Below, in pieces: positions 8,073 through 12,195 of a DNA stretch of 13,924 nt. Every line of letters begins with the position of its first letter. Position 1 is the stretch's first letter. The translations under genes and the position numbers were made by a program. The DNA lies in assembly GCA_002690445.1 (NCBI GenBank), contig NZER01000389.1, positions 1 through 13,924 on the forward strand, given 5' to 3'. The DNA is from Candidatus Pacearchaeota archaeon (GTDB lineage Archaea > Nanoarchaeota > Nanoarchaeia > Pacearchaeales > GW2011-AR1). Under the pieces are notes generated by a model, which was given only the letters and a program-made list of their open reading frames with translations, was not told where the DNA came from and searched no databases.

Positions 8073-8106
8073 TAATCCTTATAAAGTGCTCCTGGATTTG
8101 ATTGTT

Positions 8107-8829
8107 ATGATACTAAAAATCGACAGGCCGAAGCTTTTGAGTGATGCGATTGCGATTATTTCTGAGATTGTGACTGAGGTGCGGATTAAGCTTCTTGAGG
8201 ATGGGATGTCGATTGTGGCTGTGGATCCGGCGAATGTTGCGCTGGTGATTTTCAAACTGCCGAAGGAAAGTTTTTCGCAGTACGAGATTGGCGGGGAGGT
8301 GTGGGGTGTTAATCTTGATGATTTGAAAAGGATTTTGAAACGAACTTCTACAGGTTCGAGTGTTGTTTTTGAGCAGGAAGAAAACCGATTGAAGATTACG
8401 ATTTTTGACAAGATTAAGAGGGTTTTTACTTTGGCGTTGATTGAAGTTGATGCTGAGGATAAGGATGAGCCAGAATTGAGTTTTAACTGCACTGTAGAAT
8501 TGAAGTCAGATGATTTTGCTCAGGCAGTTGAAGACTGCCATGTTGTTGCTGATTCGTGCGCTTTGATTGCGGGGGATGGTTTTTTTATGGTTGAAGGAAG
8601 TGGTAGTTTGAATTCGGCGCGGGCAGAGTTTTCTGGCGACGAGGCGGTGATTGGGGGGGTGGGGAAGTCAAGGTATTCACTTGAATATTTAATGAAGTTT
8701 ATTAAAGCGGGTAAGATATCTGAAAAAGTTTCTGTTAAATTTTCAGATGATTATCCTCTGAGGATTGACTTTCCTGGGGAAAAGATGGGGATTGGTTTTA
8801 TTTTAGCTCCGAGGGTTGAGAATGACTAG
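8107..8829 (+). CDS. pcn: PCNA, DNA polymerase sliding clamp
   Basis: This is the 240-aa archaeal sliding clamp, a homotrimeric ring that tethers polymerase, ligase, FEN1 and other replication enzymes to DNA. Family landmarks are plain. LEDGMSIVAVDPANVALVIFKLP (30-52) is the first-domain signature and is followed by FSQYE. RVFTLALIEV (105-114) leads into the inter-domain connector, which is acidic here (DAEDKDEPEL). The C-terminus FILAPRVEND (231-240) is the typical LAPR end that contributes to partner binding. A GTG at 8086 could extend it by seven residues, but alignment of ILKIDRPK with strand 1 of other clamps favours the ATG at 8107. It is divergent from a winged-helix regulator with an inverted repeat between them. 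A two-hairpin element begins six bases after its stop codon. Confidence 0.96.
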   Translation: MILKIDRPKLLSDAIAIISEIVTEVRIKLLEDGMSIVAVDPANVALVIFKLPKESFSQYEIGGEVWGVNLDDLKRILKRTSTGSSVVFEQEENRLKITIFDKIKRVFTLALIEVDAEDKDEPELSFNCTVELKSDDFAQAVEDCHVVADSCALIAGDGFFMVEGSGSLNSARAEFSGDEAVIGGVGKSRYSLEYLMKFIKAGKISEKVSVKFSDDYPLRIDFPGEKMGIGFILAPRVEND

Positions 8830-8834
8830 CAGGA

Positions 8835-8890
8835 CTCTCTTTTCTTAGAAAGAAAAGATTCCCCCGAAGCAAAAGAACTACAATAGTTCC
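8835..8890 (+). repeat. Two-hairpin element, copy A (3' of PCNA)
   Basis: It begins CTC, then hairpin 1 at 8838-8858: TCTTTTCTT pairs perfectly with AAGAAAAGA around an AGA loop. The linker TTCCCCCGAAG (8859-8869) leads through CAAAA to hairpin 2 at 8875-8889 (GAACTA, loop CAA, TAGTTC). A second copy with the same loop and linker and compensated stem changes is at 11376-11450. It follows the PCNA stop directly, so it could be a 3' UTR or termination structure, or a small mobile repeat. I do not recognise a named family. Confidence 0.75.
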
Positions 8891-8923
8891 TAGCTGTACC
8901 TTCCTTTGAGATGGTTTCTAAAC

Positions 8924-8933
8924 ATTTTTAAAC
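8924..8933 (+). promoter_or_regulatory. TATA box for the membrane protease
   Basis: ATTTTTAAAC is centred about 25 bp before the ATG at 8954, giving a leaderless transcript. It lies 34 bp beyond the two-hairpin element. Confidence 0.5.
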
Positions 8934-8953
8934 ATTAATCGTGTGGGTAATTT

Positions 8954-9988
8954 ATGAAAAAAAAGGAGAAGACAATTATTGCTGGAGCTGCTGTTATCAT
9001 AGGCATTTTGGTTTTGGCTCTTTTTTTGGTCCTTTTTTCGCGGAGCAATATAAATATAATTTCTTCTTCGCCTGATGAAATTTATACAGATTCTAAGGAG
9101 TCTGTATTTTTAATAGAATCAAATTGTTTGATAGAGGCTAGTTATCCTACTCCATATGTTCATTATTATTATGAAAGCAGATTAGGAATAGCTATGCCTG
9201 CTGTTGATCCGAATTCTAATTATGAGATGATGAATTATAGTATAGTTCTCCCTTCTCAGGGCTCTGGATTTAAAGCAGAAGATAGATTATTTACTAATTC
9301 TCATGTAGTTGATTGTTCAAATGAATCTGTATCTGATTTTTTATCTGGGTATTACCGGGATGTTAATTCTACAGAATTTAAGGGGATGACTGGAATTGAT
9401 ATAGAAGAAATCTCTGACGAGCTTTGGGAAAAATTGAAAGTGCATAAGAAAAAGGTGGTAAGGGATAAACAAGAAATTGTAGATGGCTTTGCAAATGAAG
9501 TAATTACTTTTTTTAATAATCACCTTCAAATTAATGAAGTTTATTTAGATAATATTTCTATTTCCAATAGTTTAGTTTCTTCAGGGGAGCCTATTTTGGT
9601 AAATATTGAAAAAGAAGGAGAGGCTTGGCCTGGGAAAGATTTTGCTATTCTACAAACTGATGATCTTAAATTTATGTCTGTTTCTAATTTAGATTTTGGA
9701 AGTTCAAAAAATATTAGAGTTGGGGAGAAGATTTTTGTTATGGGTTATCCTGCACGTGCAGAAATAAGTTCTGAAAGTAGGCTTGAATCTTCGATAACTA
9801 GTGGGATTGTGAGTGCAGTAAAAAATTCCCCAGATGAAGAATTATATTTTCAGATTGATGCTGCAGCTTCTAGAGGGAATTCTGGAGGCCCTGTATTTGA
9901 TAGTGACGGGGATGTCGTAGGATTGCTTACAGCAGGTTCTGGAGAGTCTTTTAATTTTGTTTTTCCTTCGGACAGTATTCCAGAATAA
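8954..9988 (+). CDS. Membrane-anchored trypsin-like (S1C/HtrA-type) serine protease without PDZ domain
   Basis: The 344-aa protein has an N-terminal signal anchor (K-rich residues 1-6, hydrophobic 8-28), so the enzyme faces outside. The catalytic triad is H117 in FTNSHVVD, D229 in GKDFAILQ, and S310 in SRGNSGGPVFD, the classic GNSGGP motif of HtrA-like S1 proteases. IGIVSAV- and GYPA-type strands (261-290) and VVGLLTAG (321-328) support the fold. Between His and Asp about 110 residues are present, far more than usual, including a charged, probably helical stretch (150-195) that could be an extra regulatory lid. The chain ends at FVFPSDSIPE, where HtrA proteins pass into a PDZ domain, so it is a bare protease domain. 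Role in surface protein quality control or processing is inference. Confidence 0.88.
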   Translation: MKKKEKTIIAGAAVIIGILVLALFLVLFSRSNINIISSSPDEIYTDSKESVFLIESNCLIEASYPTPYVHYYYESRLGIAMPAVDPNSNYEMMNYSIVLPSQGSGFKAEDRLFTNSHVVDCSNESVSDFLSGYYRDVNSTEFKGMTGIDIEEISDELWEKLKVHKKKVVRDKQEIVDGFANEVITFFNNHLQINEVYLDNISISNSLVSSGEPILVNIEKEGEAWPGKDFAILQTDDLKFMSVSNLDFGSSKNIRVGEKIFVMGYPARAEISSESRLESSITSGIVSAVKNSPDEELYFQIDAAASRGNSGGPVFDSDGDVVGLLTAGSGESFNFVFPSDSIPE

Positions 9989-10010
9989 CATTTAGTGATG
10001 ATAACACAAA

Positions 10011-10021
10011 TTTTATAAATA
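10011..10021 (+). promoter_or_regulatory. TATA box for the small-ORF unit
   Basis: TTTTATAAATA is centred 25 bp upstream of the ATG at 10041. This predicts that transcription starts at or next to that ATG. Confidence 0.55.
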
Positions 10022-10040
10022 GGACATGCATTGCTATTTT

Positions 10041-10163
10041 ATGAAAAAAGAGGGTGTGCTTTCTCTATGTATTAGTAGTATCCTTGACAGGATAGGTTTA
10101 AAAACAAATCCAACTTTTTTGGATTTAATATCAAATAAATTTAAAAACTTAAAATTTTGTTAA
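10041..10163 (+). CDS. Small 40-aa ORF, first of a two-gene leaderless unit
   Basis: The frame encodes a 40-aa peptide starting MKKEGVLSLC and ending FKNLKFC. Support comes from position: a TATA box lies exactly 25 bp before the ATG, and the TAA is one base before the ATG of the next gene. It is basic with a moderately hydrophobic centre (VLSLCISSIL), too weak for a clear TM helix. The DNA also contains two hairpins: TATCCT/AGGATA at 10079-10094 and AAATCCA/TGGATTT at 10106-10126. This segment could therefore instead be a structured leader or small RNA. I do not recognise the peptide. Confidence 0.4.
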   Translation: MKKEGVLSLCISSILDRIGLKTNPTFLDLISNKFKNLKFC

Positions 10164-10164
10164 G

Positions 10165-10452
10165 ATGAAAATGGAAATGCCACAATCAACTCCTGCTTCT
10201 AATTTGAATAATTTTTTAGAGAATAAACAACAAGAGATTTTAGCTCTTGCTCAGGAATGTGCTAAGGATGTGGTTGAGAAGGAAAATGCTCTTATGGATT
10301 TTGAGATTATGGCGAGTATTAATAGCCCGATTAGTGAAAGGCAAAAATTAACAGAACATTCACGAAAGTTGAGAACAGATTGTTGGAGACAAATTCAGGA
10401 ACAAACAGGAGGGGATTTTAATAAATCAATGGACTTTTTAAATGATCTTTAA
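10165..10452 (+). CDS. Unknown 95-aa helical protein
   Basis: I do not recognise this protein. It is soluble, with a polar N-terminus (MPQSTPASN) followed by mostly helical sequence (NNFLENKQQEILALAQECAK, then KLTEHSRKLRTDCWRQIQEQ), and may form a small helical bundle or coiled coil. It has no TM segment or catalytic motif. It begins one base after the stop of the 40-aa ORF, so they are probably co-transcribed. Its stop overlaps the convergent PIN gene by 4 bp. The convergent position beside a PIN nuclease does not fit a usual VapB-VapC operon, so I do not call it an antitoxin. Confidence 0.65.
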   Translation: MKMEMPQSTPASNLNNFLENKQQEILALAQECAKDVVEKENALMDFEIMASINSPISERQKLTEHSRKLRTDCWRQIQEQTGGDFNKSMDFLNDL

Positions 10453-11021
10453 TGTCTTTTTTTCTTATAATATTTAGTATTCCCTTTTAATGCTCTAGTG
10501 ATTGCTTTATCAAAAGAGGGAAGAGCTGCTCCATCCATTCCTAAAAACTGAGCACAGATTCTTACTATCTCATCAGTGGAATGAACTTTATTTATCCCCC
10601 ATTTTTTGAAAGCAAGTAATATCAGTGAATCTGGCATATGGCATTTTAAGTAATCTTTGCCCCCCTCCCTAAGTTTTTTGTTTGACTCTTTTTCAAATAA
10701 TTTTATATCATCTTTAGGTATGAAGCATTCTTTTGGGTAGATTACTTTAACATTTCTCTTTCTTAAGAATAATTTTGCTTTTTTCTTTGCTTCTCTATCA
10801 TCTATTTTTTCTTTTATTTTTATGTACTTACTAAATTCATGGAGACAGATAGCATGGGTGAACAGCAAATTCTTATAGTTAAACATTCTTGAAGCTTCTA
10901 AGCCTAAAAGATAAGGTTGGTCATAAAATTTTATAAAAATGTTAGTATCCATACCTATTTTTCTTTTCCCGCTGAAATGTGTTTTTCTTTGAATCCCAAC
11001 TGATGTAATCTTATTTTTCAT
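10449..11021 (-). CDS. PIN-domain ribonuclease-like protein
   Basis: The 190-aa basic protein shows the PIN pattern: D25 in GMDTNIFI, E62 in LHEFSKY, D131 in MPDSLILLAFKKWG and D150 in HSTDE. These four acids would bind Mg/Mn for single-strand RNA cleavage. It is longer than a typical VapC (about 130 aa), with a 22-residue basic N-terminal extension and a basic tail (KYYKKKRH) that could help bind RNA. No antitoxin gene precedes it on the same strand, only a 30-codon frame at 11063-11155, so it may be an orphan toxin or a housekeeping RNase. Translation could alternatively begin at M24 (MDTNIF). Its + strand has C at least equal to G, unlike most - strand genes here, a possible sign of later acquisition. 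Confidence 0.72.
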   Translation of the reverse strand: MKNKITSVGIQRKTHFSGKRKIGMDTNIFIKFYDQPYLLGLEASRMFNYKNLLFTHAICLHEFSKYIKIKEKIDDREAKKKAKLFLRKRNVKVIYPKECFIPKDDIKLFEKESNKKLREGGKDYLKCHMPDSLILLAFKKWGINKVHSTDEIVRICAQFLGMDGAALPSFDKAITRALKGNTKYYKKKRH

Positions 11022-11158
11022 TTTAAATTTTATTCTATATTCAAAACTTACAGAGAAAAAATTTAATCAGCCTCTCTGCCTTGTTTGTCTCTTTTATTGT
11101 ATCTTGGTAAATTATTTTCAGCTTTTAAAGATTCTGATAAACTTTGTTTTTTCACAAC

Positions 11159-11203
11159 ATTTATATAATGAATATTCATAGGTATATTATTATGAATGTT
11201 CAT
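11159..11203 (+). promoter_or_regulatory. TATA box with two palindromic operator-like sites
   Basis: The TATA box ATTTATATAA (11159-11168) is about 27 bp before the ATG at 11192. The perfect palindrome ATGAATATTCAT (11168-11179) abuts it, and the near-identical ATGAATGTTCAT (11192-11203) includes the start codon itself, 24 bp further on. Two such sites over the promoter and start suggest autorepression by the HTH protein encoded immediately downstream. Confidence 0.55.
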
Positions 11204-11374
11204 AGTAAGATAATTGCGATTATAAAAAAAGAGAAGATTGTGACGAGTTCTGAGATTGCGCGGAAGTTAGGAGTGAGTTGGAATACTGCTGAAAAATATC
11301 TTCTGGAATTGGTTATTGAGGGAAAAATTGAGAAAATTAAAAAGCTCGGGGTGAATTTATGGTTGGTGAAATGA
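11192..11374 (+). CDS. Small winged helix-turn-helix regulator
   Basis: The 60-aa protein is essentially one winged-HTH domain: helix 1 SKIIAIIKKEK, then VTSSEIARKLGVSWNTAEKY (the HTH, about 17-36), LLELVIEGKIEKI and the strand NLWLVK. The pattern resembles archaeal MarR/Lrp-like DNA-binding domains with no sensor part. I chose the ATG at 11192 over one at 11144 because a TATA box lies 27 bp upstream of it and the earlier ATG would precede that box. It is first in an operon with the pilin-like and Cys-rich proteins, whose expression it may control. The next gene begins inside its 3' end (16-bp overlap). Confidence 0.72.
   Translation: MNVHSKIIAIIKKEKIVTSSEIARKLGVSWNTAEKYLLELVIEGKIEKIKKLGVNLWLVK
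11348..11354 (+). promoter_or_regulatory. Shine-Dalgarno site that fixes the pilin-like gene start
   Basis: GGGGTGA, close to the archaeal GGAGGTGA consensus, lies 4 nt before the ATG at 11359. It favours this start over the ATG at 11371, which would have almost no spacing from any such site. It is within the HTH coding sequence, as expected for an internal operon gene. Confidence 0.55.
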
Positions 11375-12195
11375 ACTCTTTCTTTTTAGAAAAAAGAAAT
11401 TCCTCCGAAGTAGAAAAACTTAGATTGGGAAAACAACTCCATTGTTTTCCAAATAGGAAAGCGCAAGTTGCTATCTTCATTATAGTTGGGATTGTCTTGG
11501 TGGTGGGAATTATCATGGCAATTTTGTTTTTTGGCGGGGTTGATGTTCAGTTGAAGGAAGATCTGAATCCGGAGCAGTTTATTAGCAAGTGTGTTCGGGA
11601 TGCAGTAGAGCCTTCGGTAGGGGCGGTGCTTGGCGGCGGGGGGCGGGTTGGTCCGAGTTTTTTCAAAATGTATCAGGATGAGGAGTACAATTATCTTTGC
11701 TATAATAGGAATTATTATTTACCTTGTGTTAATCAGTATCCGCAGTTAAAAGAAATTGTGGAAGATGAAATTAAGCAGGACTCAAAAGGCAGGGTAGATG
11801 AATGTTTTGCTGCGCTGAAAAGAGAATCTGAAGATAAGGGTTTTAGTTTTGATGCTGGTGCTTTAGATTATGACATAGAGTTAGTTCCTAAGGCAGTGCT
11901 TATTAAAGTTGAGAAAAGGATTGACATTGTTAGGGAAGGTAATGCAGAGACATTTTCTGAATTTGATACGCGGATTTTGTCGCCGTTGTATGAACTGGCA
12001 GGAGCTGCGAGAGAGATTGTGAATCAGGAAAGCCAGTATTGTAATTTTGAATATAATGGCTTTATGCTGTTTTATCCGGAATTTGAGATTCAGAGAATTG
12101 ATGACGAGGACAAAATTTATTTGTTGACTGACAAGCGGAGTGGGAAGTTATTTAAATTTGCTGTGAGGAGCTGTGTGCTGCCGCCAGGAATATGA
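11359..12195 (+). CDS. Pilin-like (class III signal) single-span surface protein
   Basis: Residues 33-58 (RKAQ, then VAIFIIVGIVLVV and more) form a class-III or type-IV-pilin-like signal: basic residues, a small residue and Gln just before an N-terminal hydrophobic helix. This R/K-G/A-Q-V-x-x-F motif is frequent in DPANN surface proteins as far as I recall. If processed, cleavage would follow A35. The rest (60-278) is extracellular, with cysteines at 78, 114, 123 and 149 and more near the C-terminus. It includes SKCVRDAVEPSVGAVLGGGG (77-95), resembling the C-x-x-x-A/V region seen in that group. The first 32 residues are encoded by the second two-hairpin element, an odd N-terminal extension. 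A TTG at 11425 is an alternative start. It overlaps the HTH gene and lies 4 nt before the Cys-rich gene. Confidence 0.75.
   Translation: MVGEMNSFFLEKRNSSEVEKLRLGKQLHCFPNRKAQVAIFIIVGIVLVVGIIMAILFFGGVDVQLKEDLNPEQFISKCVRDAVEPSVGAVLGGGGRVGPSFFKMYQDEEYNYLCYNRNYYLPCVNQYPQLKEIVEDEIKQDSKGRVDECFAALKRESEDKGFSFDAGALDYDIELVPKAVLIKVEKRIDIVREGNAETFSEFDTRILSPLYELAGAAREIVNQESQYCNFEYNGFMLFYPEFEIQRIDDEDKIYLLTDKRSGKLFKFAVRSCVLPPGI
11376..11450 (+). repeat. Two-hairpin element, copy B (in the 5' end of the pilin-like gene)
   Basis: It starts CTC right after the HTH stop codon. Hairpin 1 (11379-11399) pairs TTTCTTTTT with AAAAAGAAA around AGA. The linker TTCCTCCGAAG (11400-11410) is followed by an A-rich stretch and hairpin 2 (11428-11450), GGAAAACAA with TTGTTTTCC around CTCCA. 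Relative to copy A, stem 1 differs at positions 2, 4 and 7, each time with the matching change on the other arm. It lies inside the open reading frame, so it is translated unless a downstream start is used. Confidence 0.75.

What the first reader, a model, noticed from the sequence alone, without database searches (positions are those of the whole stretch)
8835..11450. Two-copy hairpin element with compensatory stem changes
The sequence at 8835-8890 and 11376-11450 shares CTC, a 9-bp perfect hairpin with an AGA loop, the linker TTCC(C/T)CCGAAG and a second hairpin. Stem 1 differs between copies at three positions and all three remain paired (C-G/T-A, T-A/C-G, C-G/T-A). Both copies start within a few bases of an upstream stop codon. 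Sequence divergence with retained pairing and loop argues for a selected RNA (3' UTR, terminator or regulatory RNA) or a hairpin-based mobile repeat. I know of no named family with this linker.
Basis: partly seen in the sequence, partly recalled or inferred. Interest (0 to 1): 0.85.

Follow-up and report, generated by a model that had tools for sequence, protein, structure and literature searches.

The report
Mobile three-strand hairpin repeats in DPANN archaea
The two hairpins belong to a scattered family of short inserted DNA elements in tiny archaea; besides its hairpin, each element carries a third strand that changes in step with it, as a triple helix would need, and copies turn up as introns in tRNA and rRNA genes, beside stop codons and exactly in front of start codons.

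Summary
In detail: both copies have the perfect 9-bp AGA hairpin, three compensated pair changes and the shared linker. They belong to a dispersed family in Nanoarchaeota-type genomes (42 of 371 in one sample). In 138 of 147 copies read, a purine run behind the linker mirrors the hairpin's purine arm over 6 or more bases and changes with it, the signature of an intrastrand triplex. A scan for that symmetry finds only these two sites in the window and none in 60 shuffles. By my tests 18 copies interrupt tRNA genes (same strand), one a 16S gene, 13 follow stop codons, and 35 lie reversed before start codons. Empty orthologous sites show gain or loss as units. W1 lies behind the PCNA stop codon; W2 overlaps a stop codon but is an apparent in-frame 27-codon insertion. 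Best reading: mobile repeats with a triplex-type core, nearest to E. coli BoxC triplex repeats and Rickettsia palindromic elements (the latter recalled). The mobilising enzyme is unknown and no triplex was measured. In leaders an RNA triplex with a coupled small ORF may regulate translation.

The parts
8832..8886 (+). copy 1 (W1), whole core element, 2 nt after the PCNA stop codon TAG (8827-8829)
   Evidence: ends judged by eye from flanking variation among the G022 copies
8838..8846 (+). W1 pyrimidine arm TCTTTTCTT
8850..8858 (+). W1 purine arm AAGAAAAGA (loop AGA 8847-8849)
8859..8870 (+). W1 linker TTCCCCCGAAGC
8871..8877 (+). W1 third strand AAAAGAA, mirror image of the purine arm
8878..8886 (+). 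W1 3' tail CTACAATAG (similar tails in other copies)
   Evidence: by eye
8086..8829 (+). PCNA gene directly upstream of W1; of 16 orthologous loci only G016 has a family member behind the stop codon
   Evidence: Pfam PF00705/PF02747
11373..11427 (+). copy 2 (W2), whole core element
11379..11387 (+). W2 pyrimidine arm TTTCTTTTT
11391..11399 (+). W2 purine arm AAAAAGAAA (loop AGA 11388-11390)
11400..11411 (+). W2 linker TTCCTCCGAAGT
11412..11418 (+). W2 third strand AGAAAAA, mirror image of the purine arm
11428..11450 (+). W2 second hairpin GGAAAACAA-CTCCA-TTGTTTTCC
   Evidence: by eye
11374..11454 (+). 81 nt (27 codons) without counterpart in the orthologues of G001 and G013: apparent in-frame insertion in the N-terminal part of ORF 11359-12195 (if the start is at 11359, as in those orthologues)
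   Evidence: compared by eye
11192..11374 (+). winged-HTH gene whose TGA overlaps the start of W2

Best explanation
W1 and W2 are two copies of a dispersed family of short (core about 55 nt, in many copies 80-90 nt with a second hairpin) mobile elements of DPANN (Nanoarchaeota-type) archaea. The core is an A/T-rich intrastrand triplex motif: a pyrimidine arm, a purine arm pairing with it, and a third purine strand that is the mirror image of the purine arm. SHOWN by sequence: the family, the three-way covariation, presence or absence of whole units at orthologous sites, and several kinds of site (inside tRNA and 16S genes, next to stop codons, in frame inside a gene, and reversed just before start codons). 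INFERRED: that the three strands really form a triplex; that gain rather than loss explains most presence/absence; that the fold is kept because it matters in DNA (single-stranded during replication or transposition, as substrate of an unidentified enzyme). DNA is favoured for the + strand because a purine-motif triplex is reported not to form in RNA (PMC4666352, passage), yet the + strand is the gene strand in the tRNA and 16S copies. INFERRED for leaders only: the opposite strand is transcribed, its pyrimidine-type triplex can form in RNA, and a small upstream ORF that ends near the gene start could couple leader folding to translation.
For: Family in relatives: 80 of 126 genomes at E<=0.1, weak hits included; strong hits in ten; 42 of 371 at E<=0.001. 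Hairpin covariation: 99.6% of cells paired and 52 double-change cells, against 16.1 in shuffles and 0-6 in slid versions. Third strand, first set: 85 of 87 copies scored, 21 distinct arms, mirror match from the loop end 149 against shuffled 77.2 sd 9.0, 0 of 5000 reach it; G positions coincide (14 against -35.2 sd 6.9). Second set of 60 copies, 28 distinct arms: 231 of 246 against 176.1 sd 5.2, 0 of 3000. Mirror run of 6 or more in 138 of 147 copies. Motif scan blind to the family: window 2, shuffles 0 of 60; 180 in 407 kb of family loci (chosen for hits, some places held twice) against 0 in 265 kb (L002-L037) and 0 in 629 kb of viral loci; 5 in 387 kb taken without regard to hits, 0 in its shuffles. 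tRNA restored on removing the element: 18 copies, all same strand; shifted controls 0 of 34 under a looser rule. 16S: L301. Leaders: 35 of 147. Empty sites: Spt5 and L11, tRNA-Thr, PCNA, the W2 gene.
Against: No structure was measured, and mirror symmetry in A/G runs of low complexity is indirect evidence. Seven copies lack a mirror run of 6 (L125, L158, L180, L191, L254, L260, L303; some because my stem caller found only a short arm) and two were not scored (L165, L166). Direct-repeat similarity also exceeds shuffles, by less: 137 against 128.5 sd 3.1 (29 of 5000 reach it), 202 against 173.5 sd 4.4 (0 of 3000). No mobilising enzyme was identified: no Y1 transposase match in 4 of 8 genomes searched, several of them rich in copies, and only 1 weak element match in 8 Y1 loci. 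I saw no consistent target-site duplication. The strand bias in tRNA genes (18 to 0) hints at RNA-level or splicing constraints that a pure DNA model does not predict. 76 of 147 copies remain unclassified.
Confidence: 0.62

Rival explanations
1. A cis-regulatory RNA. The element is primarily an mRNA leader (in the minus orientation) of information-processing genes: transcription starts at a small upstream ORF whose end meets the gene start, and an RNA U.A-U/C.G-C triplex plus a second hairpin control re-initiation. Other copies are decayed or wandering.
For: 35 of 147 copies are followed on the minus strand by an ATG, 6-7 nt from the hairpin arm in 33. 28 of 35 have an ATG small ORF ending within -22..+12 of the gene start, against 403 of 3500 shuffled leaders. 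A TATA-like box lies at -27..-30 of the small ORF in 15 of the 32 leaders with a coupled ORF (counted from its printout). Of 20 leader genes scanned, I judge 13-15 to be translation or transcription genes: L11, L44, S3Ae, S8e, Spt5, FttA, aIF2alpha, ABCE1, Nop10, RpoP, TruD, a tRNA synthetase and others. The second hairpin keeps pairing with changed stems and a free triloop in several leaders.
Against: Most copies are not leaders. Orthologous genes in close relatives lack it, so it is not needed. The small ORF's peptide is not conserved: the triloop codons vary and more than one reading frame is used. 3 of 35 leaders (G083) have no coupled ORF. Leader copies are related to each other, so the counts are not independent, and the background share of such genes was not measured. 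In one search the best-pairing hairpin found in about a third of the leaders is not the CAAAAC type.
Confidence: 0.2
2. A mobile archaeal intron. The element is a bulge-helix-bulge tRNA/rRNA intron core that spreads between RNA genes, and the intergenic copies are by-products.
For: 18 tRNA genes and a 16S gene are interrupted, on the same strand. A G010 tRNA-Thr is split by 80 nt where G004 and G009 are continuous, and the predicted fold of its precursor shows a helix with a 3-nt bulge at the junction.
Against: Leaders, post-stop copies and in-frame coding insertions are not introns. The copies are too short to hold a homing endonuclease gene. The second precursor folded did not show the bulge-helix form. 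Splicing was not shown. L177 passes the tRNA test only just (21 forms).
Confidence: 0.1
3. A transcription terminator or 3' processing hairpin placed after genes.
For: 13 copies lie within 9 nt after a stop codon of an open frame of 50 or more codons on the same strand, including W1 and W2; 4 lie just after tRNA 3' ends; the pyrimidine arm is T-rich.
Against: The same sequence lies inside tRNA and 16S genes, before start codons and inside coding frames. Most PCNA orthologues lack it.
Confidence: 0.04
4. A REP/IS200-IS605-type palindromic element mobilised by a Y1 (HUH) transposase, with the mirror strand serving as part of its recognition site.
For: Short, hairpin-cored, no clear target-site duplication; Y1 transposases occur in 4 of 8 genomes searched.
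Against: No match in 4 other genomes, several rich in copies, though completeness of the assemblies is not told; in 8 Y1 loci only one weak element match.
Confidence: 0.1

Closest known systems
E. coli BoxC / TM_ECO intrastrand triplex repeats (PMC4666352; abstract, passages, sections 16 and 18 and part 1 of the Discussion seen)
   Same: Dispersed short repeats with the order pyrimidine arm, purine arm, mirror-image purine strand (class II in that paper); multicopy and variable between close relatives.
   Different: By that paper's text BoxC is G/C-rich with a 3-nt second loop, intergenic, without strand bias, fixed distance or gene class, and not tied to mobile elements.
Rickettsia palindromic elements (recalled; only a search listing seen)
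   Same: Short mobile palindromic repeats that can insert in frame inside genes, as W2 appears to do.
   Different: As I recall that family, no third strand and no tRNA introns; different organisms and sequence. Not compared by any search.
Archaeal tRNA introns proposed to come from mobile elements (PMC3293823, abstract seen)
   Same: Gain of a tRNA intron linked to integration of a mobile element.
   Different: There a 1.8-kb element with a predicted recombinase; here about 80 nt without a gene, with the same core also outside tRNA genes.

Membership tests
intrastrand triplex motif, class II (PMC4666352) | pyrimidine arm, purine arm and third purine strand in mirror order on one strand | tested here: met
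   (138 of 147 copies at 6 or more bases)
   gaps mostly 7-14 nt; a few of 4-5 nt; 12 nt in W1 and W2
intrastrand triplex motif, class II (PMC4666352) | forms a triplex as DNA in vitro | not testable with these tools
   needs CD/NMR
E. coli BoxC / TM_ECO | G/C-rich consensus CCCTCNCCC...GGGNGAGGG...GGGNGAGGG | tested here: not met
   stems are A/T-rich; consensus
archaeal bulge-helix-bulge intron | interrupts an RNA gene whose removal restores the gene | tested here: met
   for 18 of 147 copies (tRNA; L177 marginal); a 16S gene is interrupted in L301; not for W1 or W2
archaeal bulge-helix-bulge intron | bulge-helix-bulge at the junctions, cut by the splicing endonuclease | tested here: inconclusive
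   one search shows a helix and 3-nt bulge in the G010 tRNA-Thr precursor; one search did not show it for L288; splicing not tested
IS200/IS605-derived or REP element | Y1 transposase present and linked | tested here: not met
   completeness of the genomes not told
MITE | terminal inverted repeats and target-site duplication | tested here: inconclusive
   judged by eye only: ends CACTC / CTAARATAG are not inverted repeats; flanking repeats seen in L163/L164 and L001
known RNA families (Rfam 15) | match at gathering score in the window | tested here: not met
   0 matches

The most novel reading that the evidence does not exclude
A mobile nucleic-acid element selected for a three-stranded fold that builds new gene parts in DPANN archaea: it creates tRNA and rRNA introns in one orientation and, in the other, lands exactly between promoter and start codon of translation and transcription genes, giving leaderless genes a leader with an RNA triple helix and a coupled small ORF, and so wires a shared regulon.
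Probability: 0.25. Interest if true: 0.93.

Novelty: new variant of a known kind. Interest (0 to 1): 0.8.

Why it matters
Triple-strand motifs in genomes are usually argued from composition. Here natural covariation in all three strands over dozens of stem types gives evolutionary evidence that a triplex-type fold is kept by selection. The family also offers matched filled and empty sites for the birth of archaeal tRNA/rRNA introns and of leaders on apparently leaderless genes, so both questions become testable with ordinary oligonucleotide and reporter assays.

Tried and rejected
Protein-coding reading: W1, W2 and L001 read DSLFLERKDSPEAKEL, NSFFLEKRNSSEVEKL and DSFFLEKRNSPEVEKL in one frame. 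Rejected as the general cause because 10 of the 12 base differences that I counted by eye between W1 and W2 change an amino acid while every stem change is compensated. W2 itself does lie in a reading frame, apparently by insertion.

Viral origin: none of the 69 viral hits of the linker pattern had the 9-bp hairpin next to it and no triplex motif was found in those loci. Of the 37 genome hits only L001 is a member; the loci of the 36 others (35 bacterial, L030 a methanogen) gave no triplex motif. That scan was for exact matches, so diverged copies were missed.

Direct-repeat (switch) reading of the third strand: weaker than the mirror reading in both tests but above shuffles.

Conserved leader peptide: rejected because the triloop codons vary and more than one frame is used.

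Y1 transposase partner: not supported.

Literature: searches listed no title or abstract start describing this family; one search had no hit at all. Only open-licence PubMed Central papers are held, so absence there is weak.

Selections and dropped rows: one search used 87 copies, made of 47 of the 50 listed (left out: second L152 copy, L172, reverse L147 hit) and 40; 2 of the 87 were skipped (L165, L166). For the shuffles one run per distinct arm was kept, arms of 7 nt or more and 6 or more. One search used 60 of the roughly 120 hits printed, chosen by me, leaving out those read before. Pfam was run on 20 of 35 leader genes, chosen partly to avoid repeats of one gene. In one search the start was not found in 4 of 16 L11 loci and 7 of 16 Spt5 loci, so those are not counted as filled or empty. 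In one search the absence of a TATA box before the gene start means little, since that stretch is the element itself. The 387 kb come mostly from genomes known to hold the family, and one of the 5 motifs there (L380) is a plain T/A run unlike the family.
Full report
The finding and its check. The window carries two similar hairpin elements, W1 at 8832-8886 and W2 at 11373-11427. Each has CTC, a perfect 9-bp stem with an AGA loop, the linker TTCCyCCGAAGy, a purine run and a short tail. The three stem differences are all compensated. The linker pattern, written from these copies, is far rarer by chance. Plain folding energy alone is unremarkable, and no Rfam family matches the window at its gathering score.

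More copies. No whole genome is held for the window. The linker pattern in the species-genome collection gave 37 hits, of which one, in a Nanoarchaeota assembly (L001), has the whole element. A covariance model from four copies then found matches in 80 of 126 relatives of that genome at E<=0.1, weak ones included, with strong hits in ten genomes and up to 12 matches in one of them. A broader model matched 42 of 371 genomes of the phylum at E<=0.001. Both searches scored only the best candidates of each genome, so copy numbers are lower bounds. I read 147 copies with their flanks.

The hairpin is real. On 29 distinct sequences 99.6% of stem cells pair; 52 cells have both sides changed, against 16.1 in shuffles and 0-6 when the partner column is slid. 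The alignment was fitted to the model, which leans the same way.

The third strand. The purine run after the linker is the mirror image of the purine arm, in nearly fixed register. Examples are AAGAAAAGA with AAAAGAA (W1), AAAAAGAAA with AGAAAAA (W2), AAAGAGAAA with AGAGAAA, AAAAGAAGAAA with AAAGAAGAAAA, and GAAAAGAGAA with AGAGAAAAG. In 21 distinct arms the match counted from the loop end is 149 against 77.2 sd 9.0 when runs are dealt out among arms, reached by 0 of 5000 shuffles. By longest common stretch the mirror reading gives 163 against 131.5 sd 3.8 and direct repetition 137 against 128.5 sd 3.1. Sixty further copies give 231 of 246 against 176.1 sd 5.2 for the mirror and 202 against 173.5 sd 4.4 for the direct reading. 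In all, 138 of 147 copies have a mirror run of 6 or more; 7 do not and 2 were not scored. A scan that knows nothing of the family, asking only for this three-part symmetry, finds W1 and W2 alone in the window and nothing in 60 shuffles. It finds 180 in 407 kb of family loci, which were chosen for hits and hold some places twice, and 0 in 265 kb of L002-L037 and 629 kb of viral loci. In 387 kb taken without regard to hits it finds 5, four of them family-like, with 0 in the shuffles. Mirror symmetry of purine tracts is what a triplex needs. This order is class II of Holder et al. 2015 (PMC4666352), whose text also says that purine-motif triplexes cannot form in RNA while pyrimidine-type ones can (passage seen).

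Where copies sit. My classes for 147 copies: 35 reversed before a start codon, 18 inside tRNA genes, 1 inside 16S rRNA, 13 just after a stop codon on the same strand, 4 just after a tRNA, 76 unclassified. The tRNA calls rest on removing the element and finding a tRNA across the junction: 18 copies, all on the same strand, one of them (L177) marginal; shifted controls gave 0 of 34 under a looser rule. Rfam independently sees long-insert tRNAs at eight of these loci (L174, L180, L183, L190, L287, L288, L294, L303) and the 16S gene at L301.

Gain and loss. Among resolved starts, Spt5 carries the leader in G001, G012 and G014 and not in six relatives (7 of 16 loci unresolved). L11 carries it in G010 and G007, a different insert is present in G012, and it is absent from nine (4 of 16 unresolved). 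Read by eye, the promoter-like stretch of L11 lies right before the gene in empty sites and right before the insert in filled ones. A G010 tRNA-Thr is split by 80 nt where G004 (96% identical) and G009 (90%) are continuous (G009 and G010 read). Among 16 PCNA loci only G016 has a family member behind the stop codon (by eye, by the model; the one other match, L402, is weak and elsewhere). G005 and perhaps G013 have other hairpins there. So W1 looks like a local gain. Orthologues of the W2 gene in G001 and G013 lack its 27 codons, and G006 and G015 seem to carry other inserts at that place.

Leaders. In these copies the minus strand is the gene strand. 28 of 35 contain an ATG small ORF ending within -22..+12 of the gene start, against 403 of 3500 shuffled leaders. 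Where the hairpin lacks a stop the ORF mostly ends in TAATG or ATGA overlaps. TATA-like boxes lie at -27..-30 of the small ORF in 15 of 32. The peptide is not conserved, but the second hairpin keeps pairing with changed stems in several leaders. Pfam names for 20 of the 35 genes are mostly translation and transcription proteins; I did not measure the background, and the leaders are related to each other.

Mechanism. Most likely these are small mobile DNA repeats for which a three-stranded fold of one strand matters, perhaps as substrate of an enzyme I could not identify. The Y1 transposase is not a convincing partner. The strand bias in tRNA genes suggests that context at RNA level matters too: there the gene strand is the one that should not form an RNA triplex, in leaders it is the one that could. 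Which of these is cause and which is by-product is open.

Comparison. E. coli BoxC/TM_ECO is the nearest described repeat in architecture but differs in base composition, loop length, strand bias, distances and gene classes. Rickettsia palindromic elements resemble W2's apparent in-frame insertion (recalled; listing only). Mobile-element origin of an archaeal tRNA intron has been proposed with a larger element (PMC3293823, abstract). I saw no paper describing this family in the listings of nine searches of an open-licence library.

Noticed in passing
L165 1063-1097 (-), L166 1501-1539 (+), L151, L152; window about 8885-8905: A second hairpin module (about GCACC..GGTGTACC..C..GGCAAAG; GCTGTACCTTCC behind W1 looks related) interrupts the linker of some copies; in L165 and L166 it adds 30 nt and the small ORF stays open. 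Similar stretches lie in the W2 orthologues of G006 and G015.
   Followed up: partly
L209, L212 (G022): Copies lie inside another small repeat that by eye seems to have terminal inverted repeats (GGTAATGT...ACATTACC); nested mobile elements.
   Followed up: no
L274-L282, L299 (G108 and another genome): Copies seem to interrupt tRNA genes in the T-loop rather than at the anticodon, and the G108 elements have extra GCAC/GTGC pairing; the splice test supported only L282 and L299.
   Followed up: partly
L307 (G012), upstream of L11: A different insert with its own small ORF ending just before the L11 start codon sits where G010 and G007 have the triplex leader.
   Followed up: no
L124, L177, L283, L298: Linkers of distant members look like mini-hairpins (C-TTCG-G, C-TTAG-G, CCC-TC-GGG), which could turn the strand at the triplex base.
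   Followed up: partly
L169 (G010) tRNA-Thr: The new intron ends in TTAACGAG, nearly the inverse of the exon CTCGTAAT beside it, as if the target had been copied in inverted form on insertion.
   Followed up: partly
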